Shown here piece by piece: positions 3-12,773 of a DNA stretch of 64,000 nucleotides. Under the pieces are notes generated by a model. It did not search any database. It had not been told where the DNA came from and saw only the letters and a list, made by a program, of their open reading frames with translations. Made by a program: the position numbers and the translations under genes. Every line of letters starts with the position of its first letter. Position 1 is the first letter of the stretch. The stretch spans positions 1-64,000 of the forward strand of contig JAJEHX010000005.1 in assembly GCA_022823465.1 (NCBI GenBank), read 5' to 3'. This DNA comes from Candidatus Latescibacterota bacterium. Its GTDB lineage: Bacteria > JAAXHH01.

Positions 3-1448
3 GTGGCGCTCCTGGACGAAGACCCGCGCCTCGTGAACGCGCTGCACTGGTACACCCAGCCGGTGCACCTGGCCGCCCGTCACGGACACGCCGAAGCGAC
101 GGAACTGCTGCTCGAGCGCGGCGCCGACCCGGGTCTCGTCATCTTCGATTCGACCTGGGCGAGTCTCCTCGCTGAAACGCGAGCGCGCGGTTTCAGCGAT
201 GTTGCAGCAGTCATTGAGCGCACAATGAAGGCGCGGTTCGGCTACGACCCCGCGTTTGGGAAGATCGCCACGCTGGTGAAAGAGGGCAGCGCCGACCGTG
301 TCGACACGGCGTTGAGAGACCAGCCCGAACTGGCTGACCGGTCCGACGAAGACGGAAACAACGGCCTTCACCTGGGCGTGCTGAACGGCCGGAAAGAAAT
401 GGTCGAACTGTTTCTTGAACGCGGCCTACCTATTGATTCGCGACGGGCGGACGGCAAGACGCCGCTGACGCTTTCCTTCGACACGGGTTTCGGACACGAA
501 CCCCCGGACCCGAAGCTGGGCATCACGGGATTTCTTCTCGATAGCGGGGCGCATTACGCCATCACGGCGGCCAGTTACCTGGGCGACTGGGACCGGGTGC
601 GGCAGGTGCTTTCCGAGGATGCCGGCAGTACGGTTCGCGATGCCGCGTTAAAGAGCCCCCTGGCCTACGCATCCCGGGCCGGCCACGAAAAAATCGCCGC
701 TCTGCTGCTCGAAACGGGAGCCGATGGCCATGCCGTGGACGAAGCGCTCTTCGAGGCCGTTTGGTATAAACATCCGGACGTCGTCGCCCTGTTGCTCGAG
801 CACGGAGCCAACCCGAACGTGGAGCTGGATTCCTGTGGATGCGCCGCGGGCACTGACGATCCTGCGATTCGTGATCTGCTGGTTCGTCACGGCGCGGTGT
901 ATCCGCCCTCATGGAGTTTACCGGAAGATGAACTTCGGAGACTGGTGGACAGCAAAGCGGCAAGAGCCCGCGATCCCTATCTCGTTGCGGAAGTGCTGGG
1001 GACGGAAGACGAAGAACTGATCGATACGCTTCTGGCCGATGATCCGGATGCGCCTGGCCGCCTGGAAGCACTGCAGTATCTGCCGGGATGGGGCGACGAC
1101 GGTTCGATCACGCGTAAACTCGTCGCTTCGGGTCTCGATCCGAACCGGCGTACCTTCGAGGGGCAGACTTATCTCCACGCCTGTGCCATGCACGGCTGGG
1201 AGGCGAACGCGCGGTCCTTCATCGATCACGGCGCGCAGGTGAACGTGCTGGACGAGAAAGACGGCCAGAGTCCCCTGGCGGTCGCGGCCAAAAACGGACA
1301 AATCGGCATGGTCCTGCTTCTGCTGAAACAAGGCGCAGATCCCGAACTGGCCGACTGGCCTTGGACCAGGCCGCTTTCGATCGCAGAGGAGAACGGTGAC
1401 ACGGCCATAACCGAGGCGTTTCGACGGCACGGACGCAGGGGATCTTGA
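3..1448 (+). CDS. Ankyrin-repeat protein, 5' end cut by window
   Basis: The visible 481 residues are almost entirely ankyrin repeats, with motifs such as HGHAEATELLLERGADP near the start, LHLGVLNGRKEMVELFLERG around residue 122 and AAKNGQIGMVLLLLKQGADP near the end. Ankyrin repeats are protein-binding scaffolds, so a partner-binding role is likely but the partner is unknown. The frame is open to the window edge; the GTG at position 3 is probably internal, because two of the three paralogues downstream begin with an N-terminal module (PDLRHLK..QAK) missing here. It is the first member of a four-gene ankyrin cluster. No signal peptide or catalytic domain is visible. Confidence 0.85.
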   Translation: MALLDEDPRLVNALHWYTQPVHLAARHGHAEATELLLERGADPGLVIFDSTWASLLAETRARGFSDVAAVIERTMKARFGYDPAFGKIATLVKEGSADRVDTALRDQPELADRSDEDGNNGLHLGVLNGRKEMVELFLERGLPIDSRRADGKTPLTLSFDTGFGHEPPDPKLGITGFLLDSGAHYAITAASYLGDWDRVRQVLSEDAGSTVRDAALKSPLAYASRAGHEKIAALLLETGADGHAVDEALFEAVWYKHPDVVALLLEHGANPNVELDSCGCAAGTDDPAIRDLLVRHGAVYPPSWSLPEDELRRLVDSKAARARDPYLVAEVLGTEDEELIDTLLADDPDAPGRLEALQYLPGWGDDGSITRKLVASGLDPNRRTFEGQTYLHACAMHGWEANARSFIDHGAQVNVLDEKDGQSPLAVAAKNGQIGMVLLLLKQGADPELADWPWTRPLSIAEENGDTAITEAFRRHGRRGS

Positions 1449-1482
1449 AACGCGTTCCTCAATCGCCGCCCTCCGATTACCC

Positions 1483-1511
1483 TTGACCGCCGGCTCCGCA
1501 TGCCTTACCAT
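1483..1511 (+). promoter_or_regulatory. Candidate sigma70 promoter for ankyrin gene at 1646
   Basis: TTGACC at 1483-1488 and TACCAT at 1506-1511 are separated by 17 bp. This would leave a leader of about 130 nt before the start codon at 1646. The -10 is imperfect. Confidence 0.4.
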
Positions 1512-1645
1512 TAAGTTCGGTGCGGGACAGGCCGCCTCCGGTCCGTGGACAGGGTAGAAGCCCACCTGTTGGTTCGCCATCATAAAGCTGTACTTCCTTC
1601 AGCCCGATCATACGGACGCCGGGCAGCCAGTCAAGGAGGTCAGCC

Positions 1646-2887
1646 ATGTCGGAATCCGCCGTAGTACAACTCCCCGATCAACCCGATCTGCGCCACCTGA
1701 AAGACCAGGCGAAAGACCTGGTGAGCACCGGTTCCTGCCCATCGCTCGCCGATGCGCTGTTCAACGTCGCGCGCCGATACGGTTTTCCCAGTTGGCCGAA
1801 GCTGAAGGCCTATGTCGAGTCCGTCGGATCCATGGGTGCGCTAGAACAGGCCATCCTCGAAGACCACGTCGGCCGGGTAAGGGACCTGCTGACCGAAGAT
1901 CCCGGTCTGATACACCGTGAGGGGCACTGGACCAGGCGGCGCCGGCACAATGGCTACCGCCCGCTAGCCTATGCCGCGTTTTTCGGAAAGTCGAAGGTCA
2001 TGGAAGTCCTGATCGCCGCCGGCGCGGATGTACACGAAGGGGGCGAAAGGGCATTGCGCGCCGCGGCGTACTTCGATAACAACCTGGACGCCGTCGAATT
2101 GCTGCTCAGCCACGGCGCCGATCCGAATGCGACGACGGTATCGCCTTCCGGCCGTTCCTACAGAGTGATAGACTATCCCTGCATGACCCTGGCGTCCGGG
2201 ATGTTGCGCCATCTCGTGTCCCATGGCGGCAGCCTGCTGCCGGAGAACGTGGGCATGATCCTGGCTACCAACGAGCGAAGGCCGCAAGACAAGGCCGATT
2301 GTCTTCGCGTCATGGCGGAAGCGGGGTTGGGCTTGCCGGACACGCCGCCCATGGCCCTGCACCTGCGGGATACCCGGCTCCTGGAAGCGCATCTGCGCAG
2401 GGATTCCCGGATGACGTCGCGACTGTTCTCGGAAAGGGACGTTTTTCCGTCTGGATTCGGTATAGAACCCCCTTCTCCATACGCCTATGTGACCCCATTG
2501 TCCGGCGGGGTAACCCTGCTTCACATGGCCGTCGAATTGTGTGACGTTGAAATGGCCCGGTGGCTCCTCGAACACGGCGCCGATGTCAATGCTCCCACGG
2601 GTACGGACCGGGACGGGTTCGGCGGCTGGACGCCTTTGTTTCATGCCATGGCCACGCTGCACGTGCCACGCCATTTCTCCGACATGGCGGAACTGCTCCT
2701 CGAACGTGGCGCCGATCCGGCGGCTAGGGCGTCCATCAGAAAGCCGGTCGCAGACGGCGGAGAGACGACCTGGAAAGACGTCACGGCTGCGGATTACGCC
2801 CGCCAGTTCGTTGAACCGGACCTTGTAAATCACGACGCCCTGCAGCGGGTTTCGCGGGCACTGGAGGCCATAGACCAATCCGATTGA
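1646..2887 (+). CDS. Ankyrin-repeat protein with N-terminal PDLRHLK module
   Basis: 413 residues. Residues about 12-60 form the module shared with the gene at 6876: PDLRHLKDQAKDL followed by ARRYGFPSWPKLKAYVE. Ankyrin repeats follow, for example YAAFFGKSKVMEVLIAAGAD and ELLLSHGADPNA, and again HMAVELCDVEMARWLLEHGA. The ATG at 1646 is supported by a strong AAGGAGG site ending about 7 nt upstream. No signal peptide, so probably cytoplasmic. It lies about 200 bp after one paralogue and about 100 bp before the next. The function is unknown beyond likely protein binding. The stop codon lies in a 13-bp duplication (2878-2903). Confidence 0.88.
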   Translation: MSESAVVQLPDQPDLRHLKDQAKDLVSTGSCPSLADALFNVARRYGFPSWPKLKAYVESVGSMGALEQAILEDHVGRVRDLLTEDPGLIHREGHWTRRRRHNGYRPLAYAAFFGKSKVMEVLIAAGADVHEGGERALRAAAYFDNNLDAVELLLSHGADPNATTVSPSGRSYRVIDYPCMTLASGMLRHLVSHGGSLLPENVGMILATNERRPQDKADCLRVMAEAGLGLPDTPPMALHLRDTRLLEAHLRRDSRMTSRLFSERDVFPSGFGIEPPSPYAYVTPLSGGVTLLHMAVELCDVEMARWLLEHGADVNAPTGTDRDGFGGWTPLFHAMATLHVPRHFSDMAELLLERGADPAARASIRKPVADGGETTWKDVTAADYARQFVEPDLVNHDALQRVSRALEAIDQSD

Positions 2888-2903
2888 CGGATCTGATTGA
2901 CGG
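2878..2903 (+). repeat. 13-bp tandem duplication over the ankyrin gene stop codon
   Basis: ATCCGATTGACGG (2878-2890) is followed directly by ATCTGATTGACGG (2891-2903), with one mismatch. The TGA stop at 2885-2887 lies in the first copy. One of many short tandem repeats at gene 3' ends in this window. Confidence 0.7.
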
Positions 2904-2988
2904 CAACGGCCAGATTCCTGTTTTAAGCTCACGAGATCAGCCGATCCGGTGACGATCAATACCGGACCGGCTGCGGGTTCATTTGCAT

Positions 2989-4818
2989 ATGACGGCTCCC
3001 CATCATTCTCCTTCCAGACTCTGGCCCTACCCGGTTGTTCAAGCTGAAATCGAACATGAAGCCCTGAACCTGTTCCAGGGGTATGGATCCGGCCTGGCCG
3101 GGGCCGTGGCGGATGTCCGCCGTTATGGATCCTCCAATGATCCTTCATCCTTCGATTTGAATGATGCCCGGGACGTGCTGGCAAGGAGCTACGGTTTTCC
3201 TGGCTGGGCACAGGTGGAACGATACTTCCAAACGGTAGAACACCTTTCTCGCAGTCCCAACGTGGAGTCGGCGTCCCCGGAACGGAATGACGCAGAGGGA
3301 CGGACCGGTGATTTCCTTCGTCTCGCCTGCCTGACCCAGGGTACCCAGGATCATCCATCGAGATGGGCCAGGGCAAGGAGCATGCTGGATGCCCATCCGG
3401 AACTCTCGCGGGTGAGTATATACGCTGCCGCCGTGGCCGGCGACGTTTCTGCCTTAGGCACTTTTCTGAAAGCAGAACCTGAGCTGGCGAAGACCCCGGG
3501 CGGACCTCATGGCTGGGAACCCCTGCTTTACGTGGCGTTCTCGCGTCTGGATCCTGGACCCCAGGGGCATACGGCCGTAGAGGTAACCCGGTTGTTGCTT
3601 GCCCATGGCGCCGACCCGAACGCGGGCTACCTATGGGCCGGGTTCCCCTGTCCCTACACCGTCCTTACCGGCGTATTCGGCGAAGGGGAAAACGGTCCCG
3701 CCAGATGTCCGCCACACCGGGATTGCTATGAGCTGGCCGGGATCCTGATCGAGGCCGGCGCCGATCCGAACGACGCGCAGACGCTCTACAACCGGATGTT
3801 CAGCCGCGACGACGGACACCTGCGGTTCCTGTTCGCGCGTGGACTGGGAAAGGAAGGGAACCGGCCCTGGCACCGGCTGCTGGGCGAGCAGTCCCGCGGC
3901 TGGGTGGCCAGTCCAGGCGACATGCTGGCCTATCAACTGCAGTGGGCCGCCCGATGGAACTACCCCGATCGGGTCCGGTTACTGATCGAAAACGGGGCCG
4001 ACGCAAACCGGCCATCCAACCGGCCCGCCGCACAGACGCCCTACGGGGAAGCCATCTTTCACGGGAACGAGGCCATTGCCGAGTACCTGGCGGCTTGCGG
4101 CGCGGAGACCTCTCCGCTGGACGACCTGGACCGGTTTGCGGGTGCGTGCATCAATGGAGACGTGGATCGTGCCCGCGCGTTGCTCGCACGCGATCCGTCA
4201 TTGATCGAAAAACCTGGAGAACGCGGCAAGGCGCTCATGGAGAACGCTGTAGGATCGGACAACCGGGACGCTGTCCGGCTGATGGCCGGATTGGGCTTCG
4301 ACGTGAACGCCTTCGGCATGCACGATGCGGCCCGCTACGGCCACCTGGAAATGATCAAGCTGCTGGTCGAACTTGGGGCCGACACAGCTTTGAAGGACTC
4401 GAGTCACGCCATCAGTGCCCTGGGCTACGCCAGCCACTACCAGCAGGACCACGTGATTGAGTATCTGGCTCAGTTTGCCGGAATCCACCGGGCCGTGCAG
4501 TCAGATTTGCTGGACCGCGTTGGGGAACTGCTGAAAGGTGACCCCGGCTGCGTCTGTGAACGGGACGACGCGGGGAACACGCCGCTGCACTGTCTCGACG
4601 TAGACAACCGGATGGAAGATACGGAGGAGATACTCCACCTGCTCGTTACGCACGGCGCCGCCGTCAATGCCAGGAACAAAGAAGGCCTGACGCCGCTCGA
4701 CCGGCTGGAGCGTCTTCCCGGTTTCAGTCGAAGAGACGATCTGACGGAACGGCTGCGCGGTTACGGGGCCGTGGAATCAGACGCCGCCGACGAGTCGAAG
4801 GACCACCCGGCGTCCTGA
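2989..4818 (+). CDS. Long ankyrin-repeat protein
   Basis: About 609 residues from the ATG at 2989; a TTG two codons upstream (2983) is a possible alternative and neither has a clear Shine-Dalgarno. The N-terminus carries a divergent form of the cluster's module (DARDVLARSYGFPGWAQVERY). Many ankyrin repeats follow, such as EVTRLLLAHGADPNAGY, LLIENGADANR, DAARYGHLEMIKLLVELGAD and a C-terminal LLVTHGAAVNARNKEGLTPL. Likely a cytoplasmic protein-binding scaffold. It is followed by a degenerate 20-22 bp repeat that starts before the stop codon, then by a convergent minus-strand unit. Confidence 0.85.
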   Translation: MTAPHHSPSRLWPYPVVQAEIEHEALNLFQGYGSGLAGAVADVRRYGSSNDPSSFDLNDARDVLARSYGFPGWAQVERYFQTVEHLSRSPNVESASPERNDAEGRTGDFLRLACLTQGTQDHPSRWARARSMLDAHPELSRVSIYAAAVAGDVSALGTFLKAEPELAKTPGGPHGWEPLLYVAFSRLDPGPQGHTAVEVTRLLLAHGADPNAGYLWAGFPCPYTVLTGVFGEGENGPARCPPHRDCYELAGILIEAGADPNDAQTLYNRMFSRDDGHLRFLFARGLGKEGNRPWHRLLGEQSRGWVASPGDMLAYQLQWAARWNYPDRVRLLIENGADANRPSNRPAAQTPYGEAIFHGNEAIAEYLAACGAETSPLDDLDRFAGACINGDVDRARALLARDPSLIEKPGERGKALMENAVGSDNRDAVRLMAGLGFDVNAFGMHDAARYGHLEMIKLLVELGADTALKDSSHAISALGYASHYQQDHVIEYLAQFAGIHRAVQSDLLDRVGELLKGDPGCVCERDDAGNTPLHCLDVDNRMEDTEEILHLLVTHGAAVNARNKEGLTPLDRLERLPGFSRRDDLTERLRGYGAVESDAADESKDHPAS

Positions 4819-4887
4819 TCCAGCGCCCGGTGTCATGGATCGGCCACTCGATGTCCTGAACCGGTCGCCTGGCGTCCACAACCGGCG
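4806..4887 (+). repeat. Degenerate 20-22 bp tandem repeat at a gene 3' end
   Basis: Four diverged units: CCCGGCGTCCTGATCCAGCG (4806-4825, holding the TGA stop at 4816), CCCGGTGTCATGGATCGGCC (4826-4845), one at 4846-4867, and CCTGGCGTCCACAACCGGCG (4868-4887). It fills the short gap between convergent genes. Confidence 0.5.
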
Positions 4888-4902
4888 CCAGGCGCGTCAG
4901 GA

Positions 4903-5229
4903 TCATTTTCCCCATTTCGAAACTATCAGCCCCGCCAGCAGACCGACGACGATCCCCGGGGGCACGATCTCCACGTAGGATCCCGTGGAAATCGCCGCGA
5001 GAAGAGAAAGGACGGCACCCACCGCGCCGCCGGCCAGCACGTTCTTGCCTGCCCCTTCGACTCTGCATGCGATAACGCCGACCAGCAGGCCCGTGACCAG
5101 GCCCTTCCCCGTTCCCCAAACGATAATCTCGGTCATCATGCCCCGGGCTTCGGGAATCAGGAACGCGGACAGCCCGTCGAGAAGCCCGAGCCCGCCGCCG
5201 GCGATCAGACCCAATGGTACGCGCTTCAT
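4903..5229 (-). CDS. Small integral membrane protein, glycine-rich
   Basis: 108 residues with about three hydrophobic stretches: residues 5-25 (LGLIAGGGLGLLDGLSAFLI), 40-55 (GKGLVTGLLVGVIA) and two adjoining segments between 65 and 103 (LAGGAVGAVLSLLAAIS, then VPPGIVVGLLAGLIVS). No family recognised. Its ATG overlaps the stop of the upstream VOC gene by 4 nt (5226-5229), suggesting translational coupling in an AraC-VOC-membrane protein unit. Function unknown. Confidence 0.65.
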   Translation of the reverse strand: MKRVPLGLIAGGGLGLLDGLSAFLIPEARGMMTEIIVWGTGKGLVTGLLVGVIACRVEGAGKNVLAGGAVGAVLSLLAAISTGSYVEIVPPGIVVGLLAGLIVSKWGK

Positions 5230-5651
5230 GATGACTGCTCCGGTGTATGCGTGTGACAGTTGAACATCCAGTTTACGCTGAATCTGTCCTTTATCATCCC
5301 GAAACGGGCGCCCCAGAACGTGTCCTGCAGCGGCATGGTCACCTCGCCACCGGCCGACATGGCGTTGTACGCCTGCTCCAGTTCATCCACGCTCGCGAAG
5401 TCGATCGACAACGAGATGTTGGTTTCCGAAGGGACCGTCTCAATGTGGTCGGAGCCCATGATCACGTTATCGCCGAATCGGATGGACATGTGCATAGCCT
5501 TACCCATCATGTGGTCGGGGACCTCCATGCCGATGTCCTGGTCCTTGCTGTAGTAACTGATGTTCTCGACCGTACCGCCCAGACAGCCCCGGTAGAACTC
5601 GAGGGCCTCCTCGCACTGGCCGTTGAACGCCAGATAGGGCACCAGTTTCAC
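5226..5651 (-). CDS. VOC-superfamily protein, PhnB-like
   Basis: 141 residues. The N-terminus, VPYLAFNGQCEEALEFYRGC, and the later MHMSIRFGDNVIMGSDH segment match PhnB-like members of the vicinal oxygen chelate fold, the 3-demethylubiquinone methyltransferase-like group. These small dimeric proteins bind unknown ligands and are often annotated glyoxalase-like; the reaction cannot be assigned. It lies 121 bp downstream of an AraC regulator on the same strand and overlaps the next gene by 4 nt, so the regulator may control this pair. A typical length for the family. Confidence 0.85.
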   Translation of the reverse strand: MKLVPYLAFNGQCEEALEFYRGCLGGTVENISYYSKDQDIGMEVPDHMMGKAMHMSIRFGDNVIMGSDHIETVPSETNISLSIDFASVDELEQAYNAMSAGGEVTMPLQDTFWGARFGMIKDRFSVNWMFNCHTHTPEQSS

Positions 5652-5772
5652 GATATGACCTCCTCGGGTTGCATGTTACCGGACCGGTAACGAATCTCTT
5701 CGTTATGAACCGCAGTCATAACCCAAGATACAATACAGCAGGTCCGAAAATTGTAAAAAAGCGACAACCTCC

Positions 5773-6579
5773 CTATATGTCCGCGAATTTCACGTTGTTT
5801 TTAACAAAGAAGGCCTTCGGCGTGAACCCGGTAAACGCCGTGAATTCCCTGATGAAATGAGCCTGGTCGAAATACCCGCATTCGTAGGCCAGTTGCGTCA
5901 ACGTCTTTCCCCGATGCCCATCCAGGTGATGGCAGATATTCAGGAACCGGCTGATGCGGGCAAAGGTCTTCGGCGTCGTGCCGACCGTGGACGCGAACTT
6001 CCTTTCCAGCTGCTTTCTGGAAAGACCGACGCGCCGGCCGACCTCTTCTATGGATAACTGCCCTCCGGCAGCCCGAATGAGCTTCACCGCTTCATCGAGG
6101 GCGGCATCGTCCTTGCGATGCGCCTCCAATCGATCCAGCAGGAACCTCTGCACGACACCGGCGGATTCCGCACCGTCCGGCGCCTCGCGGAGTTTCTCCA
6201 TCAATTCCTCATGATGCGCCGGCCAGAGCGTTTCGGCGCCTACCGTGTCGTCCAGAAAACTGTGCACGGGCTTGTCAAAGAAATGGTAGGCGCCCCATGG
6301 ATAGAAGCGGACCGACACGAAGCCGGTCCGGCCGTTGGATTCAATTTCTATATACTTGCGCATCTGGGAAACCGCGAAGCTCCGCGGCTGGACCATTCTT
6401 TTCCCGCCCGCTACGGTCGTGATCCACGGATCTCCGTAGTGAAAGACGATCTCCACGATTCCGCCCGGCACGATGAGCGATTTGGGCGCCTGGTCGTCCG
6501 CATGCTCGGATTCCATCATCCACACGAGTTGAACATAGGGCGTGAGTTCGGCGTGCGTTTCAAATTCGCGATATATCAT
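5773..6579 (-). CDS. AraC-family transcriptional regulator
   Basis: 268 residues from the ATG at 6579, chosen because the upstream in-frame extension to 6708 shows no conserved sequence. Residues 1-110 resemble the ligand-sensing N-terminal domain common in this group (TPYVQLVWMMES, LIVPGGIVEIVFHYGDP). The C-terminal third is the double helix-turn-helix: LSIEEVGRRVGLSRKQLERKF, then LTQLAYECGYFDQAHFIREF and GFTPKAF. It probably regulates the VOC/membrane protein pair downstream. The 296-bp gap towards the divergent ankyrin gene at 6876 may hold operators; none was recognised. Confidence 0.9.
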   Translation of the reverse strand: MIYREFETHAELTPYVQLVWMMESEHADDQAPKSLIVPGGIVEIVFHYGDPWITTVAGGKRMVQPRSFAVSQMRKYIEIESNGRTGFVSVRFYPWGAYHFFDKPVHSFLDDTVGAETLWPAHHEELMEKLREAPDGAESAGVVQRFLLDRLEAHRKDDAALDEAVKLIRAAGGQLSIEEVGRRVGLSRKQLERKFASTVGTTPKTFARISRFLNICHHLDGHRGKTLTQLAYECGYFDQAHFIREFTAFTGFTPKAFFVKNNVKFADI

Positions 6580-6692
6580 GACTGATGGGATAAGTAACCG
6601 GCTAAAGGCGATCCCGTCAAGCCGGAGCGCGAGCTCTGAAGCAACAATACGTCCAGAAGAAGCCTGGCCATCGTTGTGCCGGGCGCTTTCCC

Positions 6693-6722
6693 TTGACGGG
6701 CACCCCAAGACGCTTGTACATT
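6693..6722 (+). promoter_or_regulatory. Candidate promoter for ankyrin gene at 6876
   Basis: TTGACG (6693-6698) and TACATT (6717-6722), 18-bp spacer, lie in the divergent gap between the AraC gene and the ankyrin gene. Imperfect match. Confidence 0.4.
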
Positions 6723-6875
6723 ACAAACGACCGGCGTGTGCAGGACGCCGCCCGTCCGCGGAAAGAACACAAGTTCACCTGTATCGGTACCCATCTAACG
6801 TGGCAACCTTCTTCTTGCCCGTTCGGCGGACGCACGGGTGTTTCAGCGGTCTCGTGATCGCTTGAAGGAGGTCCC

Positions 6876-8396
6876 ATGCCGTCCCTGCCATCTCATCCCG
6901 ATTTACGCCATCTCAAGTTGCAGGCGAAGACGCTTTTGAAGTCCGCGCGGCGCGGCGAAGAGCAGGCCGTCGACAGAATCCGTTCGGCCGCCGGAGCGCG
7001 TCGCGAGCGCGTCGTGCTGTCGGACGCCTATCATGCCATCGCAAGGGAATACGGGTTCAGGTCCTGGTCCCATCTCAAGATCCACCTGGAAATCGCCTCC
7101 AAGAATCTGGAAGAAAAGCTGGCGACGTTTCTGTCATCGGCCTGGCTGTGGGGCGACCGTCAAAGAGCCGAAACCCTGCTCGCATCTGCTCCGGAACTCT
7201 CCAAAGGCAACATCTACGCAGCCTGCGCCGCCGGAGACGTGGATGCCGTTACACGCATCCTGGAGACTGATCCCGCCGCGGCCACGACGAAGGGCGGTCC
7301 GAAGGACTGGCCTCCGATCCTCTATGCGACGTGGTCCTGCTTCCTCGCGGAGCGCGCCGACGCCATGGTCCGCGTCCTGGAATTGCTGCTGCGACACGGC
7401 GCCGACCCCGACAGCTACTGGGTGAACGAGTCCGACTGGAAGGAGTCGGCGCTCTACGGATGCGTGGAAAACAACTGCGTGCCGGTGGCCCGGGTACTGG
7501 TGGACGCGGGCGCCAATCCCAACGACAACGAATCCCTTTACCACGCCTGCGAGAAGTTCAATCTCGAACTGCTCGACGTCGTAGCGGTGAATGGATTGGA
7601 CGCGGAGACGGTTTCCTACTGCATCAAGCATGTCATGGATATGAACTGGACGGAGGGGATCCTGTGGTTCCTCGGCCAGGGTGCAGATCCCAACGCCGTC
7701 CATCCCGCCGCCGACGAAACGTCCCTTCACTGGGCGGTAAAGAGAAACTGCTCGGCCGAAGTGATCGTCGCGCTGCTCGATGCTGAGGCGGATCCCAACG
7801 CCCGCACGTCCACCGGGAAGAGTACAGCACTGGGAATCATCGGATGGACCCCGCTCGACTTCGCCCTCCGGCTAGGCCGCGGGGAAATCGCGGCGCTCCT
7901 CCGGCGGCATGGCGCCGTGCCGTCCCCCCAGTCCGAATACGATCGATTCATAGTCGCCTGCGCCAATACGGACCTGGACATCGTTGAGAAGCTGAAAGGC
8001 CGTCGCCTGGCCGACCTGACCGACGATGACCGGACCCTGATCAGCCACGTCGCCCAGGTGGACAACTGGGCGGCGGTTCGTCTCATGGCGGAACTGGGCT
8101 GGCCGGTCGATGCCCGGGGATGGATGGAAGCCACGCCTCTCTACTGGGCCCTGTGCAAGGGTCATCCTGAAATGGTCGATTTCCTCCTTCGGCGGGGCGC
8201 CTCCACCGATCCCATTGGCGGATATTTCCAGCATCCGGTACACGCCGTCACTTACTGTCAGTGGAATCGAGACAGGGGAAACTATCCCGCCGCGCTCGAA
8301 TTGATCCTGGAACATGGCGTGGCGATTCCGGACGGGTTCTTCCCCTGCGGCAACACCGCCATGGACGCGGTGCTGTCGCGCTACGTCGAGGACTGA
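6876..8396 (+). CDS. Ankyrin-repeat protein with N-terminal PDLRHLK module
   Basis: 506 residues. Residues about 5-70 hold the module HPDLRHLKLQAKTLLKSARR...AREYGFRSWSHLK, close to that of the gene at 1646. Ankyrin repeats follow: VLELLLRHGADPDSYW, VLVDAGANPNDNESLY, WAVKRNCSAEVIVALLDAEA and HPEMVDFLLRRGAS. The ATG at 6876 has a textbook AAGGAGG at 6865-6871, 4 nt upstream. No secretion signal. Paralogy within the cluster suggests local gene duplication; the binding partner is unknown. Confidence 0.88.
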   Translation: MPSLPSHPDLRHLKLQAKTLLKSARRGEEQAVDRIRSAAGARRERVVLSDAYHAIAREYGFRSWSHLKIHLEIASKNLEEKLATFLSSAWLWGDRQRAETLLASAPELSKGNIYAACAAGDVDAVTRILETDPAAATTKGGPKDWPPILYATWSCFLAERADAMVRVLELLLRHGADPDSYWVNESDWKESALYGCVENNCVPVARVLVDAGANPNDNESLYHACEKFNLELLDVVAVNGLDAETVSYCIKHVMDMNWTEGILWFLGQGADPNAVHPAADETSLHWAVKRNCSAEVIVALLDAEADPNARTSTGKSTALGIIGWTPLDFALRLGRGEIAALLRRHGAVPSPQSEYDRFIVACANTDLDIVEKLKGRRLADLTDDDRTLISHVAQVDNWAAVRLMAELGWPVDARGWMEATPLYWALCKGHPEMVDFLLRRGASTDPIGGYFQHPVHAVTYCQWNRDRGNYPAALELILEHGVAIPDGFFPCGNTAMDAVLSRYVED

Positions 8397-8535: not shown

Positions 8536-8811
8536 ATGGCCCGCATGGTCCACTGCGTCAAGCTCGACGAGGAACTGGAAGGACTGGACTTCGTTCCCTT
8601 TCCAAACGAGCTTGGTCAGCGTATCTATGACAACATATCCAAACAGGCCTGGCAGATGTGGATCAGCTATTCGGTCATGGTCATCAACGAGTACCGCCTG
8701 AATCTCGCCACGACGGAGGGCCAGGAGGTCTACGACCGGCACCTGGAGGAGTTCTTCTTCGGTGAAGGCGCCGAAATGCCGCCGGGATACCGGCCCCCTC
8801 AGTCCAAGTAA
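8536..8811 (+). CDS. yggX: Fe(2+)-trafficking / oxidative-damage protection protein (YggX)
   Basis: 91 residues, the normal family length. The conserved Cys is at position 7 (MVHCVKL), as in E. coli YggX, followed by LEGLDFVPFPNELGQRIYDNIS, the QAWQMWISYSVMVINEYRLN block and a C-terminal EEFFFGEGAE segment. In enterobacteria the protein protects Fe-S clusters and influences labile iron. A gene for a radical SAM (Fe-S) protein begins 33 nt downstream on the same strand, a fitting neighbour though possibly chance. A good promoter lies upstream. Confidence 0.93.
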   Translation: MARMVHCVKLDEELEGLDFVPFPNELGQRIYDNISKQAWQMWISYSVMVINEYRLNLATTEGQEVYDRHLEEFFFGEGAEMPPGYRPPQSK

Positions 8812-8844: not shown

Positions 8845-10344
8845 ATGAAACGCGACGATGACATCCTGCTCATTTCCTGCTATGAACTGGGCCATCAGCC
8901 CTTCAGCCTGGCTTCTCCCGCTGCCCGCCTGAAGTCCGACGGATTCGACGTCTCCGTCGTCGACGCCGCGATAGAACCCATTCCGGAGGATATCGTCCGG
9001 CGTGCCGGGTTCATCGGCATCTCGGTGCCCATGCATACGGCCATGCGGGTCGGGATGGACCTGTCGCGCCGCATCCGGAAGCTCAATCCCGGCGCCCATC
9101 TCTGTTTCTACGGACTCTACGCCACCCTGAACGCCGACTATCTCCTGTCCCATGGAGCCGACTCGGTGATCGGCGGCGAGTTTGAACAACCGCTCTGCGA
9201 CCTGGTAGACAGGCTATGCAGGGGCGGAACTTCCGAGGCGGCCGGAACCTCTGAGGCGGTCGGAACCTCTGCAACGGGCGGAACTACTGCAACGGGCGGA
9301 ACTACTACAACGGCCGTCGAAGCGGACTCCGGCCCGAATCTCTCCCGCCAGGCCTGGAAAATCCCGGACCGAAGCAGCTTGCCCGCTTTGAAGCGGTACG
9401 CCCAGCTGGACACGGGGGTGGAACTGCTTCCCGCCGGTTACACCGAAACCACGCGCGGTTGCCTGCATACCTGTCTGCATTGCCCGATCACGCCGGTGTA
9501 CAACGGCCGGTTCTTCGCCGTGCCCGCCGACGTGGTCCTTGCCGACGTGGACCAGCAGGTGCGCATAGGGGCGCGCCATATCACCTTCGGGGACCCGGAT
9601 TTCCTGAACGGTCCCACGCACGTTTTGCGCATCCTGCGAAGGATGAGCGACGCCCACCCCGGACTGACCTTCGATTTCACCACCAAGATCGAACACATCC
9701 TGCAGCATGCGTCCTTTTTCCCAGAAGCCAGGGACCTGGGCGGCCTCTTCGTCGTATCGGCCGTCGAATCGGTCAGCAACCTGGTGCTGAAGCGCCTCCG
9801 GAAAGGGCATGACCGGGACGATATCGTCCGGGCCCTCGCCGTTCTGCGGGACGCGGACCTGCCCATGCGGCCCTCGCTGGTGGCCTTCACGCCCTGGACA
9901 ACGCTGGACGACTACCTGGATCTGCTGGATTTCGTCGAGGTCCACGACCTGGTCGAGCACATTGATCCGGTACAGTATACCATCCGGCTGCTCGTACCGC
10001 CCGGGTCGGCCTTGCTGGACGAAGCGGATACCCGGTCATGGATAGGCGAGTTGGATGAAGACGGGTTCACCTACGCGTGGGATCATGACGATGCGCGCAT
10101 GGACCGCCTGCACCGGCGGGTTTCCCGTCTCGTGGAGGAGGCCGACGCATCGGGAGAACAAAGGGACAACCGGAGTCTGTTCCACCGGATCAGGCGCCTG
10201 GCGGCAGAAACGGCAGATGTGGAGGCGCCTGCAGAGCGGCCGATACAAGACCTTTCGCCTGAACGGCGGCGGGTCCCCAGGCTGACCGAGGCCTGGTTCT
10301 GCTGAGCGGAGCCCACGGCGAGCCGGAAAGGCTCGTTTATCTGA
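8845..10344 (+). CDS. CUAEP-tail radical SAM selenoprotein (UGA read as Sec)
   Basis: Residues 1-125 look like a B12-binding-type Rossmann domain without an evident cobalamin DxHxxG motif. Residues 127-156 are a repetitive linker. Then comes a radical SAM core with C206-x3-C210-x2-C213 (RGCLHTCLHCP) to bind a 4Fe-4S cluster, followed by HITFGDPDFLNGP and DFTTKIEHIL. Conventional translation stops at TGA 10303-10305 after TEAWFC. Reading that UGA as selenocysteine gives C486-U487-A-E-P plus ten residues to the TGA at 10342. C-U-A-E-P is the defining tail of the CUAEP/CCAEP-tail radical SAM (seleno)protein family, and a bacterial SECIS-like hairpin follows the UGA. Total 499 residues. The family's substrate is unknown. 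Confidence 0.85.
9223..9312 (+). repeat. In-frame 18-bp tandem repeat, five copies, in radical SAM gene
   Basis: Five consecutive 18-bp units, such as GGCGGAACTACTGCAACG (9277-9294), encode the hexapeptides GGTSEA, AGTSEA, VGTSAT, GGTTAT and GGTTTT (residues 127-156). They form a flexible linker between the N-terminal domain and the radical SAM core. The last two units differ from each other at one base, which suggests recent expansion. Confidence 0.95.
10303..10335 (+). promoter_or_regulatory. Candidate bacterial SECIS element after in-frame UGA
   Basis: TGA at 10303-10305, a 13-nt spacer, then a perfect 6-bp stem CGAGCC (10319-10324) / GGCTCG (10330-10335) closing the loop GGAAA. The apical loop starts 20 nt after the UGA and begins with GG. 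Both match the general bacterial SECIS description: loop roughly 16-37 nt from the UGA, with G in its first two positions. The short TTTAT after the stem also allows a weak terminator. Confidence 0.75.
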
Positions 10345-10375: not shown

Positions 10376-11575
10376 TCAGGAAGCGTAACCGTCCTGGGCG
10401 GGGCCGCAGTGCTGCGGCCGGGACGGTGCCCGGTACTGCACGCGGTGATCGGGCGTTTCGATGCGGATGCCGCCCTGCTGCTCCGACGTGAGGCAATGGT
10501 CGAGGATGCCGCAGACGGTCAGCGTCCGTTCTACCGGGATCGGTGAAACGCCGGTATCGAACATCTCATCGATCCTCGAAACCAGGCAGGCTGAATAGGT
10601 GACCGGCGGGGTGGGCGGCAGGAAGAACTGGGTAGACTGGAGATCCGGTTCGTCCTTCAGACGGGCGGCGAAACAGTAATCGCCGATGGCGCCGTTGAGC
10701 ATGAGCAGCGTGGTTTTCAAACCGTCCACGTGTTCGATGAAGTAGGCGGCCGGCTCCTCGGCCAGACGGCGCAGTTCCCCCGTCCCCAACAGGTCCTGCG
10801 TACGGCCGTCTTCTTCGGGCAGCCCCTTTGGACTGTCGCAGCGGGACAGCGCGGATTCCAACAGTTCCTTCGAATAACGCCCCTCCTCGCCGGCTTCCCA
10901 GACCTCGTCACCCACGATCATCTGCACCGCCCTGACCCCCGTCTCCCCGCCCCTGCGCCGCTCTATCATGCACTGCATGGCCTCGAGGGCGTGGTAATCC
11001 ATGGCGTCCGAACCGCCGACGCCCACCATCAGCGCTTCCTCGATTTCACATTCCAGCGGGAGTTCCAGGTCGGGCAGCCGCCACGTGACCGGCAAACTCG
11101 ATCCGGCAAGCACAGGAAAGCCGAGCCGCTTCGAATCGGCCACCATTTCCAGCCCGTTCGCGAAGCTGTAGGACAGGTTCTTGTCGTTGTAGATCGGCAC
11201 GGAGCGGCCGTCCTGCTCGAACACCTCGACGCAGGCTTTGAACATCTCGTAACGCGGATACTGTTTCTGGCCTTTCTCGTTGTCGGGATAGTCGCCGTGC
11301 TCGCAGATGATGAGGATGCCGTCCACCGCAAGAGTATCTCCTCCGCATCGCAGCGCTTCGGCGATGGTGGGATAGACCTCGAAACCGAATTCCCGGGCAC
11401 GGTCGATGCTCTGGTCGCCTTCGGGCCGCTGGTCGACGTAGAGCGATACGACCTCCGCGTCTGGACGGTTCCAGCGGCCGGACCGCGGGTAGCCCACGAG
11501 GAACCGGTCCGCGAAATGCTGGGTGTGGGAGAGATAGGTGTAGATGGAACTGATGACGGCGAGCCGTTTGGGCAT
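10376..11575 (-). CDS. Uncharacterised protein, paralogue of upstream neighbour
   Basis: 399 residues from the ATG at 11575, which follows a GGAG site; an upstream extension to 11629 is not conserved in the paralogue. It shares with the next gene SHTQHFADRFLVGY, VVSLYVDQ, YPTIAEAL, VDGILIICEHGDYP, EKGQKQYPRYEMF, a PIYNDKNLS segment and AGSSLPVTWRLP. The N-terminus (KRLAVISSIYTYLSH) has the feel of a Rossmann beta-alpha unit, and the EHG step recalls the place of EKP in Gfo/Idh/MocA enzymes, but no nucleotide-binding glycine motif is evident. Four nucleotides separate it from the upstream paralogue, so the two are probably co-translated. Family not recognised. Confidence 0.75.
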   Translation of the reverse strand: MPKRLAVISSIYTYLSHTQHFADRFLVGYPRSGRWNRPDAEVVSLYVDQRPEGDQSIDRAREFGFEVYPTIAEALRCGGDTLAVDGILIICEHGDYPDNEKGQKQYPRYEMFKACVEVFEQDGRSVPIYNDKNLSYSFANGLEMVADSKRLGFPVLAGSSLPVTWRLPDLELPLECEIEEALMVGVGGSDAMDYHALEAMQCMIERRRGGETGVRAVQMIVGDEVWEAGEEGRYSKELLESALSRCDSPKGLPEEDGRTQDLLGTGELRRLAEEPAAYFIEHVDGLKTTLLMLNGAIGDYCFAARLKDEPDLQSTQFFLPPTPPVTYSACLVSRIDEMFDTGVSPIPVERTLTVCGILDHCLTSEQQGGIRIETPDHRVQYRAPSRPQHCGPAQDGYAS

Positions 11576-11579
11576 GGTT

Positions 11580-12773
11580 TCAATATCTCCAGAACGTGGA
11601 TTGCTCGGGCGCCGGATAGACGACGTCAAGGTGGGGCGTCTCGAGGCGCACCTGTCCCTCGTGCAGGCTGTCGACCCCTGCCGCGGTCAGACCGGTCGTC
11701 AGCAGGGTACGTTCGACCGGGTACGCGGCCTCGCCGGTGAGAAACATCTGTTCCACGTTGTTGACCTGCGGCGAGAAGAAGTTGGCCAGCGACGTGCGCG
11801 CGGGCGGCATGGGCAGATACATCTGCGTCGACAGCGGCTCGCTCTGCCCCGTCAGGCGCGCAGCGAAGTTGAAGTCCTCCACCAGCCCGTTGAAGAGGAT
11901 CATGGTGCATTTGAGGCCGTCGCGGTGCTCGTAGGTGTAGGCCACGGGGTCTTCCACCATCCGCTTCATCTCATTGATGGTGGGAAAGATGTTATTGAAC
12001 CCATCGCGGGAAGGCTTCAACGTGTGACTGCGGCACAGGGCCGCTTCGAACAGCTCCCGGGACCATTCGCCTTCGTGCCAGGCCTCCCAGAAGGCTTCGC
12101 CCCGGCGGGCGTGAAGCCAGGAGACACCCGCCTCGCCGCCGACGCGCCGTTCCACCATGCACTGCAGGGTCTCCAGGCCGTGGAAGTCGTAGCTGTCGAC
12201 CCCGCCGTAGCACACGCACACGGCCTCTTCCACCCCGGCGTGCAGCGGCATGTCGACGGAGGGCGTCCGCCAGGTGACCGGCAGGCTCGAACCCGCCATG
12301 AAGGCGAACCCCAGCCGCTGCGACGTGTCGTACATCTCTTTGGCCCAGTCCCAGTTCCATGACAGGTGCTTGTCGTTGAAAATGGGAGCGGAACGGCCAC
12401 TGGCCTCGTAGACCTCCACGATCTCGCGGAACAGTTCGTAGCGCGGATAGAGCCGCTGCCCTTTTTCGTTGGTCGGATACTCGCCGTGCTCGCCCACCAG
12501 GAGGACGCCGTCCACCTGCAGCGAATCCCCGCCCAGGGTGAGGGCGTCGGCGACCGTGGGGTATATCTTCATCCCGGGGAACCGTGCGGCCCGGTCCCTG
12601 CTGAGATCGTTCTCGCGCACCTGGTCCACGTACAGGGAAACCAGGTCCATGGGCGGGTGGTGGTGCCGTCCGGCCCAGCCGTACCCCTCCAGGAAGCGGT
12701 CCACGATATGCTGGGTGTGGGCGTAGGGGTGGTAGATGGTCGTGATCGCGGCGATCTTCGGTCGGTTGGGCAT
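11580..12773 (-). CDS. Uncharacterised protein, first of a tandem paralogous pair
   Basis: 397 residues. It begins RPKIAAITTIYHPYAHTQH and contains DRFLEGYGWAG, MDLVSLYVDQ, VDGVLLVGEHGEYPTNEKGQ, LYPRYELF, APIFNDKHLSWNW, AGSSLPVTWRTPS and LETLQCMVERRVGGEAGVSW. Conserved acidic, His and Arg residues lie in the same order as in the downstream paralogue, and similarity runs the whole length, so the pair arose by tandem duplication. No signal peptide or membrane segment. A divergent oxidoreductase-like fold is a guess from the motif layout. No function can be assigned. Confidence 0.75.
   Translation of the reverse strand: MPNRPKIAAITTIYHPYAHTQHIVDRFLEGYGWAGRHHHPPMDLVSLYVDQVRENDLSRDRAARFPGMKIYPTVADALTLGGDSLQVDGVLLVGEHGEYPTNEKGQRLYPRYELFREIVEVYEASGRSAPIFNDKHLSWNWDWAKEMYDTSQRLGFAFMAGSSLPVTWRTPSVDMPLHAGVEEAVCVCYGGVDSYDFHGLETLQCMVERRVGGEAGVSWLHARRGEAFWEAWHEGEWSRELFEAALCRSHTLKPSRDGFNNIFPTINEMKRMVEDPVAYTYEHRDGLKCTMILFNGLVEDFNFAARLTGQSEPLSTQMYLPMPPARTSLANFFSPQVNNVEQMFLTGEAAYPVERTLLTTGLTAAGVDSLHEGQVRLETPHLDVVYPAPEQSTFWRY

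What the first reader, a model, noticed from the sequence alone, without database searches (positions are those of the whole stretch)
8845..10344. Radical SAM selenoprotein with C-U-A-E-P tail
The frame reaches a cysteine codon, then TGA, then GCG GAG CCC (Ala-Glu-Pro), exactly the C-U-A-E-P signature that defines the CUAEP/CCAEP-tail radical SAM (seleno)protein family, and stays open for nine more codons to a second TGA. Ordinary gene calling would cut the last 13 residues, including the selenocysteine at position 487. The family has a known motif but no known substrate, so an intact member with a plausible redox pair (C486/U487) at its C-terminus is the best candidate here for undescribed chemistry.
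Basis: partly seen in the sequence, partly recalled or inferred. Interest (0 to 1): 0.92.

Follow-up and report, generated by a model that had tools for sequence, protein, structure and literature searches.

The report
Selenium-tailed radical enzyme with ligase partner
An uncultured bacterium makes a radical enzyme whose last few residues carry selenium; it is a sister of the enzyme that builds an arsenic antibiotic, and its gene nearly always occurs with a gene for a peptide-forming ligase, so the two probably make an undescribed small amino-acid product together.

Summary
Frame 8845-10341 reads 499 residues through TGA 10303-10305 into WFC-U-AEP and ends at a second stop. The protein scores 685 bits against NCBIfam NF040546 (cut-off 500). 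All 13 CUAEP genomes of its phylum keep exactly one in-frame TGA; 53 homologues elsewhere have Cys there; a covarying hairpin follows the TGA at a fixed distance in 28 loci.

The sister family is ArsL, the arsinothricin radical SAM enzyme, whose tail also has a vicinal Cys pair. CUAEP travels with an L-amino acid ligase: adjacent in Nitrospirota, Actinomycetota and Chloroflexota, elsewhere in the genome here and in Poribacteria. A sister species that lost CUAEP cleanly has a broken ligase gene. Fe-S helper genes are frequent neighbours; arsenic genes are not.

Best reading: it makes an unusual amino acid, probably by ArsL-like 3-amino-3-carboxypropyl transfer to an acceptor held by C486/U487, and the ligase turns it into a dipeptide. 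Identity and partnership are well supported; chemistry is inferred. The family is already named; I found no description of the ligase link.

The parts
8845..10344 (+). CUAEP-tail radical SAM selenoprotein gene (499 aa plus stop)
   Evidence: NF040546 684.9 bits; PF02310 39.4 bits at residues 9-120 and PF04055 44.6 bits at 201-341
9460..9483 (+). radical SAM cluster motif CLHTCLHC (C206, C210, C213), invariant in 49 homologues and shared with ArsL
   Evidence: translation; invariant columns
10300..10305 (+). vicinal pair C486 (TGC) and U487 (TGA = Sec)
   Evidence: position 487 is TGA in 26 loci, Cys in 53
10306..10341 (+). tail AEPTASRKGSFI, lost if TGA is read as stop
   Evidence: identical in 7 relatives
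10317..10337 (+). SECIS-like hairpin GGCGAGCC-GGAAA-GGCTCGTT; apical loop 10325-10329, loop G at 10326 invariant in 28 UGA loci
8536..8811 (+). YggX (PF04362, Fe(2+) trafficking / oxidative damage protection), 33 bases upstream of CUAEP; also upstream of CUAEP in all relatives read and in a deltaproteobacterial MAG (L047)
9225..9313 (+). 18-base tandem repeat coding a disordered linker (residues about 128-157), not part of the mechanism
   Evidence: pLDDT below 50 at residues 129-159

Best explanation
8845-10344 is a genuine selenoprotein gene: SelB inserts Sec at codon 487, directed by the hairpin that follows the UGA (shown by comparison, not by experiment). The enzyme has an N-terminal B12-binding-like Rossmann domain, a radical SAM barrel with a single CX3CX2C cluster motif, and a flexible linker to an almost invariant tail PRLTEAWFCUAEPT. 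It is the sister family of ArsL. [quoted passage not shown] The tail pair C486/U487 would fold into the active site and hold or activate the acceptor atom (inferred). The amino acid is then joined to a second amino acid by a dedicated ATP-grasp L-amino acid ligase (LAL), encoded in trans in this genome (G000:C49:72780-74111) and next to CUAEP in many other phyla (partnership shown by gene order, co-occurrence and one parallel loss; reaction inferred). The acceptor is unknown and there is no genomic sign that it is arsenic. My confidence by step: selenoprotein and family 0.97; same pathway as the LAL 0.85; product is an amino acid 0.65; ACP transfer with the tail binding the acceptor 0.4. The figure below is for the whole chain.
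For: Sec: SelA/B/C/D in the genome; UGA loci lie in genomes with SelB in 22 of 24 cases against 8 of 26 for Cys loci, Fisher p = 1e-5; hairpin on one fixed axis in 28 UGA loci, 82% of cells paired against 31-47% when slid, 24 double changes against 9.7 shuffled; stem score UGA against Cys loci p = 7e-8. ArsL kinship: NF040542 is the second family at 315 bits, the next is 33 bits, and the relation is reciprocal, with ArsL proteins scoring 312-336 bits on NF040546 and at most 61 on anything else; the aligned tails put RCC in register with FCU. Ligase: directly adjacent or overlapping in Nitrospirota, Actinomycetota, Chloroflexota and a planctomycete, PF13535 + PF18603; strong orthologue in own genome and most of the phylum and in 22 of 23 further CUAEP genomes; G063 has neither gene; G058 lacks CUAEP at a syntenic site with 92-95% identical flanking proteins and its ligase lacks an internal stretch, changes frame and has lost the C-terminal domain. 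ArsL clusters of Priestia, Alicyclobacillus, Klebsiella and Pantoea plasmids also encode an ATP-grasp ligase. The closest solved ligase is BL00235 (3vot, 230 bits), a Met-Gly/Met-Met ligase (PMC6920838); methionine is itself an ACP compound. ArsL forming AST-OH in E. coli, with ACP transfer proposed by its authors: PMC8552651.
Against: No biochemistry. ACP transfer by ArsL is itself inferred from its product. ArsL-type arsenic neighbours (ArsR, aquaporin, ArsN1, GTPase) are absent from 81 CUAEP loci; only two weak methyltransferase matches. LipA/MiaB-type helper genes (Nfu, YgfZ) near CUAEP could point to other chemistry. The tail has only moderate predicted confidence (pLDDT about 70 for residues 481-490) and no coordinates were available to see whether it reaches the cluster. 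G057 has CUAEP without the ligase and G064 the ligase without CUAEP (MAGs estimated 87% and 85% complete).
Confidence: 0.4

Rival explanations
1. Canonical 5'-deoxyadenosyl (or cobalamin-assisted methyl) radical chemistry on an amino acid or other small substrate, with the C486-U487 tail as a redox pair that supplies electrons or hydrogen. The ligase still uses the product.
For: Fold matches AprD4, OxsB, TsrM, MgmA; PF02310 B12-binding hit; weak hits to B12 rSAM families. Sec next to Cys is typical of redox selenoproteins (own knowledge).
Against: No DxHxxG cobalamin motif in residues 1-125 (sequence). ArsL is far closer than any B12 enzyme (315 against at most 33 bits) and works in E. coli without other biosynthesis genes (PMC8552651).
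Confidence: 0.27
2. Sulfur or selenium insertion of the LipA/MiaB kind, consuming a cluster that Nfu, YgfZ or YggX help to restore, with the tail ligating a second cluster or carrying the chalcogen.
For: Nfu-type gene near CUAEP in 31 of 81 loci, YggX in 10, YgfZ adjacent in the planctomycete, where the order is YgfZ-CUAEP-Nfu-LAL. YgfZ is needed by MiaB/RimO and NfuA/IscU make LipA catalytic (PMC10002905).
Against: Invariant Cys are only C206, C210, C213, C486 and C/U487: no conserved Cys triad for an auxiliary cluster. The same helpers can serve any labile Fe-S enzyme, and much of the Nfu signal comes from related Actinomycetota and Chloroflexota.
Confidence: 0.13
3. A true arsinothricin-type enzyme: the acceptor is As(III), bound by C486/U487, and the ligase makes an arsinothricin dipeptide.
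For: Sister of ArsL with a comparable vicinal tail pair; ArsL clusters also have a ligase. Thiol and selenol pairs bind As(III) tightly (own knowledge).
Against: Score 315 is below the ArsL cut-off of 450; arsenic genes found in the five ArsL loci are missing from 81 CUAEP loci; near-universal presence in a sparse phylum (13 of 16) looks more like core metabolism than a resistance cluster.
Confidence: 0.12
4. The TGA is an ordinary stop and the AEP tail is chance or relic.
For: None beyond the fact that TGA is also the final stop here.
Against: Exact tail conservation, UGA/Cys interchange, hairpin covariation, SelA-D.
Confidence: 0.01

Closest known systems
NCBIfam NF040546, CUAEP/CCAEP-tail radical SAM (seleno)protein
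   Same: Full-length match at 684.9 bits over a 500 cut-off, with the defining tail
   Different: Nothing essential; this copy has an extra repeat-coded linker
ArsL (NF040542), arsinothricin biosynthesis radical SAM protein
   Same: Same domain order, single CX3CX2C motif, C-terminal tail with a vicinal Cys pair, L-amino acid ligase nearby in several clusters
   Different: 32-37% identical; longer linker before the tail (about 70 aa); CUAEP not RCCLKC; Sec in place of the second Cys; no ars genes nearby
L-amino acid ligases (BL00235, BacD), the partner
   Same: PF13535 plus PF18603; best solved relative 3vot at 230 bits
   Different: Forms its own conserved group (A6, 37-78% identical to the first member across phyla); generic plasmid ligases reach at most 92 bits by tblastn
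LipA/MiaB/RimO sulfur-inserting radical SAM enzymes
   Same: MiaB appears among fold matches; Fe-S helper genes nearby
   Different: No auxiliary-cluster cysteine triad

Membership tests
NF040546 CUAEP/CCAEP-tail rSAM (seleno)protein | score above curated cut-off of 500 | tested here: met
   684.9 bits
NF040546 CUAEP/CCAEP-tail rSAM (seleno)protein | C-terminal C-[U/C]-A-E-P | tested here: met
NF040546 CUAEP/CCAEP-tail rSAM (seleno)protein | Sec machinery in the genome for the U form | tested here: met
   SelA, SelB, SelD over cut-off, tRNA-Sec
NF040546 CUAEP/CCAEP-tail rSAM (seleno)protein | Sec actually present in the protein | not testable with these tools
   needs mass spectrometry or 75Se
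ArsL (NF040542) | score above curated cut-off of 450 | tested here: not met
   315.5 bits
ArsL (NF040542) | RCCLKC tail | tested here: not met
   WFCUAEPT; the Cys pair aligns but not the motif
ArsL (NF040542) | arsenic gene neighbourhood | tested here: not met
   window neighbours and 81 loci
ArsL (NF040542) | ACP transfer to As(III) | not testable with these tools
   -
Cobalamin-dependent rSAM methylases | B12-binding domain with DxHxxG | tested here: inconclusive
   PF02310 39.4 bits but no DxHxxG in residues 1-125; some B12 rSAM enzymes lack the motif too (own knowledge)
LipA/MiaB-type sulfur insertion | second set of Cys for an auxiliary cluster | tested here: not met
   invariant Cys list
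Bacterial SECIS | hairpin shortly after UGA with a conserved loop G | tested here: met
   fixed axis, covariation, invariant G in column 24; the structure was taken from these sequences, so the counts lean towards it

The most novel reading that the evidence does not exclude
A widespread, undescribed two-enzyme pathway of uncultured bacteria in which a selenocysteine in a mobile tail holds a metalloid, chalcogen or other acceptor for C-X bond formation by a radical SAM enzyme, and a dedicated L-amino acid ligase converts the new amino acid into a dipeptide metabolite. That would be a catalytic role for Sec as an acceptor-holding ligand rather than a redox residue.
Probability: 0.25. Interest if true: 0.88.

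Novelty: new member of a known kind. Interest (0 to 1): 0.62.

Why it matters
The family has had a name but no substrate. Linking it to a specific ligase (gene order, co-occurrence, one parallel loss) and to ArsL turns 'unknown radical SAM selenoprotein' into a testable pathway: co-express two genes and look for a new amino acid and its dipeptide. If the tail holds the acceptor, Sec would have a role other than redox chemistry, and natural Cys/Sec pairs of enzymes would let it be measured. It also shows a concrete annotation error: the tail, including the probable functional residue, is cut off in public records such as T. roseum WP_012643191.1.

Tried and rejected
Stop-codon artefact: rejected. 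Arsenic cluster: rejected as a neighbourhood feature, kept as a minor rival for the acceptor. DUF169 (PF02596) as the general partner: adjacent in Nitrospirota and Poribacteria and within 2-3 kb in a few Actinomycetota (L057, L060), but absent from the own genome and 14 of the 15 other genomes of the phylum. Sequence search against solved structures finds no close relative. No coordinates of the AlphaFold model were given out, so tail-to-cluster distance could not be measured. Literature: no open paper names CUAEP or RCCLKC; arsinothricin together with ATP-grasp finds none. A tandem ligase-CUAEP profile (A8) was built to test co-occurrence in a larger phylum, but my last genome search went to SelB in Poribacteria instead (76 of 85 over cut-off), so that wider test was not run.

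Full report
Observation. C486 is TGC at 10300-10302, U487 is TGA at 10303-10305, AEP and nine more codons follow, and a second TGA at 10342-10344 ends the frame. The product is 499 residues. NCBIfam NF040546 matches residues 7-494 at 684.9 bits, far above its cut-off of 500. Pfam finds a B12-binding-like domain and a radical SAM domain. The window is the first 64 kb of a contig in an unnamed 3.86-Mb draft genome estimated 98% complete.

Is the TGA read as Sec? Every test available says yes. The genome holds SelA (492 bits), SelB (350), SelD (254), all over curated cut-offs, and tRNA-Sec (70.6 bits, anticodon tca) 0.2 kb downstream of selB. Among 79 loci with a readable tail, 26 have TGA and 53 have TGC or TGT at that one position, and all continue into [A/S]EP. 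The ratio is not a prevalence estimate, because one search pattern was built from the tail. Genomes with the UGA form have SelB over cut-off in 22 of 24 cases, those with Cys in 8 of 26 (Fisher p = 1e-5; related genomes are not independent, and the two exceptions are draft assemblies). In the own phylum 13 of 16 genomes carry the gene over cut-off, each with exactly one internal TGA.

SECIS. A hairpin follows the UGA at a fixed distance: GGCGAGCC-GGAAA-GGCTCGTT here, GACGAACC-GGCAA-GGTTCGTT in a related genus, GGGGCA-GTT-TGCCCC in Poribacteria, AGGACC-AGTTG-GGTCCT in a planctomycete. All but one of 28 UGA loci place the best stem on the same axis (the exception, L088, has a mismatch in it). 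In the ungapped alignment 82% of cells pair against 31-47% when slid, with 24 double changes against 9.7 in shuffles, and the loop G of column 24 is invariant. Cys loci lack it (stem score p = 7e-8). Codons after the UGA vary less at silent positions than the body of the gene in seven relatives (3 of 12 against 198 of 335 variable, p = 0.03). Caution: the structure was read off these sequences, and relatedness inflates shuffle tests.

What it is related to. The second-best family is ArsL at 315 bits and the third is 33 bits. The relation is reciprocal: two ArsL proteins from plasmids score 653-671 on their own model and 312-336 on NF040546, with nothing else above 61. Aligned together, the two families share the core motif CX3CX2C, D250, D252, the SRLY-like R381-L382 and G387-S388 stretch, the W412 region, and a terminal vicinal pair: FC[U/C] in CUAEP, RCC in ArsL. 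CUAEP has about 70 more residues of linker before the tail. The alignment of such short tails over a long gap is a suggestion, not proof of homology of the pair. In 49 CUAEP proteins the only invariant cysteines are C206, C210, C213, C486 and position 487.

The partner. In Nitrospirota an ATP-grasp gene follows CUAEP; in Actinomycetota and Chloroflexota it precedes it, often overlapping by a few bases; in a planctomycete it lies one gene away. It is an L-amino acid ligase (PF13535 and LAL_C2 PF18603), closest among solved structures to BL00235, which makes Met-Gly and Met-Met (PMC6920838). In the window's own genome the ligase is not adjacent, but a strong orthologue lies at C49:72780-74111 (390 plus 94 bits; domains), followed by an M32 carboxypeptidase, as in all six loci read in the phylum. 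It is also present in 22 of 23 further CUAEP genomes where it is not adjacent or had not been checked. In the phylum the two genes go together: 12 genomes have both; G063 has neither; G058 lacks CUAEP. At the G058 site yggX and the downstream genes are 92-95% identical at the protein level and the CUAEP gene is simply missing. Its ligase gene retains residues 1-63 in one frame and about 115-330 in another, without the C-terminal domain, in a nine-contig assembly. G057 (CUAEP only) and G064 (ligase only) are among the less complete assemblies. ArsL clusters on Priestia, Alicyclobacillus, Klebsiella and Pantoea plasmids also have an ATP-grasp gene of this fold class, 22-26% identical to the CUAEP-associated ones.

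Other neighbours. Fe-S or iron genes recur: Nfu-type in 31 of 81 loci, YggX in 10 (including the window, 33 bases upstream, and a deltaproteobacterial MAG), YgfZ adjacent in the planctomycete, whose order is YgfZ-CUAEP-Nfu-ligase. DUF169 is adjacent in Nitrospirota and Poribacteria but absent here. Marker genes of the ArsL clusters (ArsR, aquaporin, ArsN1, GTPase) do not match any of 81 CUAEP loci, apart from two weak methyltransferase hits, while they are present in the ArsL loci.

Mechanism. Shown: family, Sec coding, ligase linkage. From literature: ArsL alone suffices for AST-OH formation from arsenite in E. coli, and its authors propose ACP transfer (PMC8552651). Inferred: CUAEP uses SAM in the same way, the tail pair holds the acceptor, and the product is an amino acid that the ligase joins to another. 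A methionine-like first substrate would fit both the ACP origin and the BL00235 resemblance. The acceptor stays open. Rivals are redox use of the tail in canonical radical chemistry and sulfur insertion with cluster repair, the latter drawing on the Nfu/YgfZ neighbours (PMC10002905) but lacking a second cysteine set. The AlphaFold model is confident (mean pLDDT 88.9, tail about 70); its best solved matches are AprD4, OxsB, TsrM, MgmA and MiaB, which does not decide between the rivals.

Verdict. The finding is right and its family already named, so the protein is a new member of a known kind. The pathway link to the ligase, the loss in step, the hairpin and the ArsL comparison go beyond it and make the family's open question testable.

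Noticed in passing
G058 (L133 8214-9141; L138 5108-6641): Sister species that lost CUAEP cleanly also has a broken ligase gene beside an intact M32 carboxypeptidase gene: an apparent loss of the pathway in step.
   Followed up: yes
L129 8757-13670 (own genome C49): Ligase followed by M32 carboxypeptidase; in several genomes (L129, L133, L134) then a DUF6785/DUF6784 membrane protein. Possible dipeptide turnover or transport genes.
   Followed up: partly
CUAEP loci L024, L034, L039-L085: Nfu-type Fe-S carrier gene close to CUAEP in 31 of 81 loci; YgfZ adjacent in L034.
   Followed up: partly
L016-L022, L026-L038, L057, L060: DUF169 (PF02596) gene next to or near CUAEP in Nitrospirota, Poribacteria and a few Actinomycetota; function unknown.
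   Followed up: partly
L039, L042, L043, L071, L076, L083, L085 and others: Cysteine-rich protein of about 260 aa (weak DUF3109 match) directly downstream of CUAEP in 12 actinobacterial loci, sometimes overlapping.
   Followed up: no
L141-L153 (Poribacteria): A 318-aa protein without any Pfam match sits directly before the ligase in 11 Poribacteria loci.
   Followed up: partly
window 10376-11629 and 11580-12773, minus strand: Two paralogous proteins of about 400 aa without Pfam or NCBIfam match, conserved beside CUAEP in the genus and also kept where CUAEP is lost.
   Followed up: partly
window 9225-9313: 18-base tandem repeat inside the coding frame, giving a disordered TSEA/TTAT linker.
   Followed up: partly
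window 3-8396: Four large ankyrin-repeat proteins in a row upstream of YggX-CUAEP.
   Followed up: no
G000:C51:53377-56632: A SelA-like (182 bits, below cut-off) and a SelD-like (101 bits, below cut-off) gene lie close together, apart from the true selA and selD.
   Followed up: no
G000:C46:3107-4033: SelD lies in a 786-codon open frame, so it may be a fusion protein.
   Followed up: no
L115 7387-7458 (T. roseum plasmid NC_011961.1): RefSeq CDS WP_012643191.1 stops at the Sec codon although the DNA reads on into AEP and the hairpin is present.
   Followed up: yes
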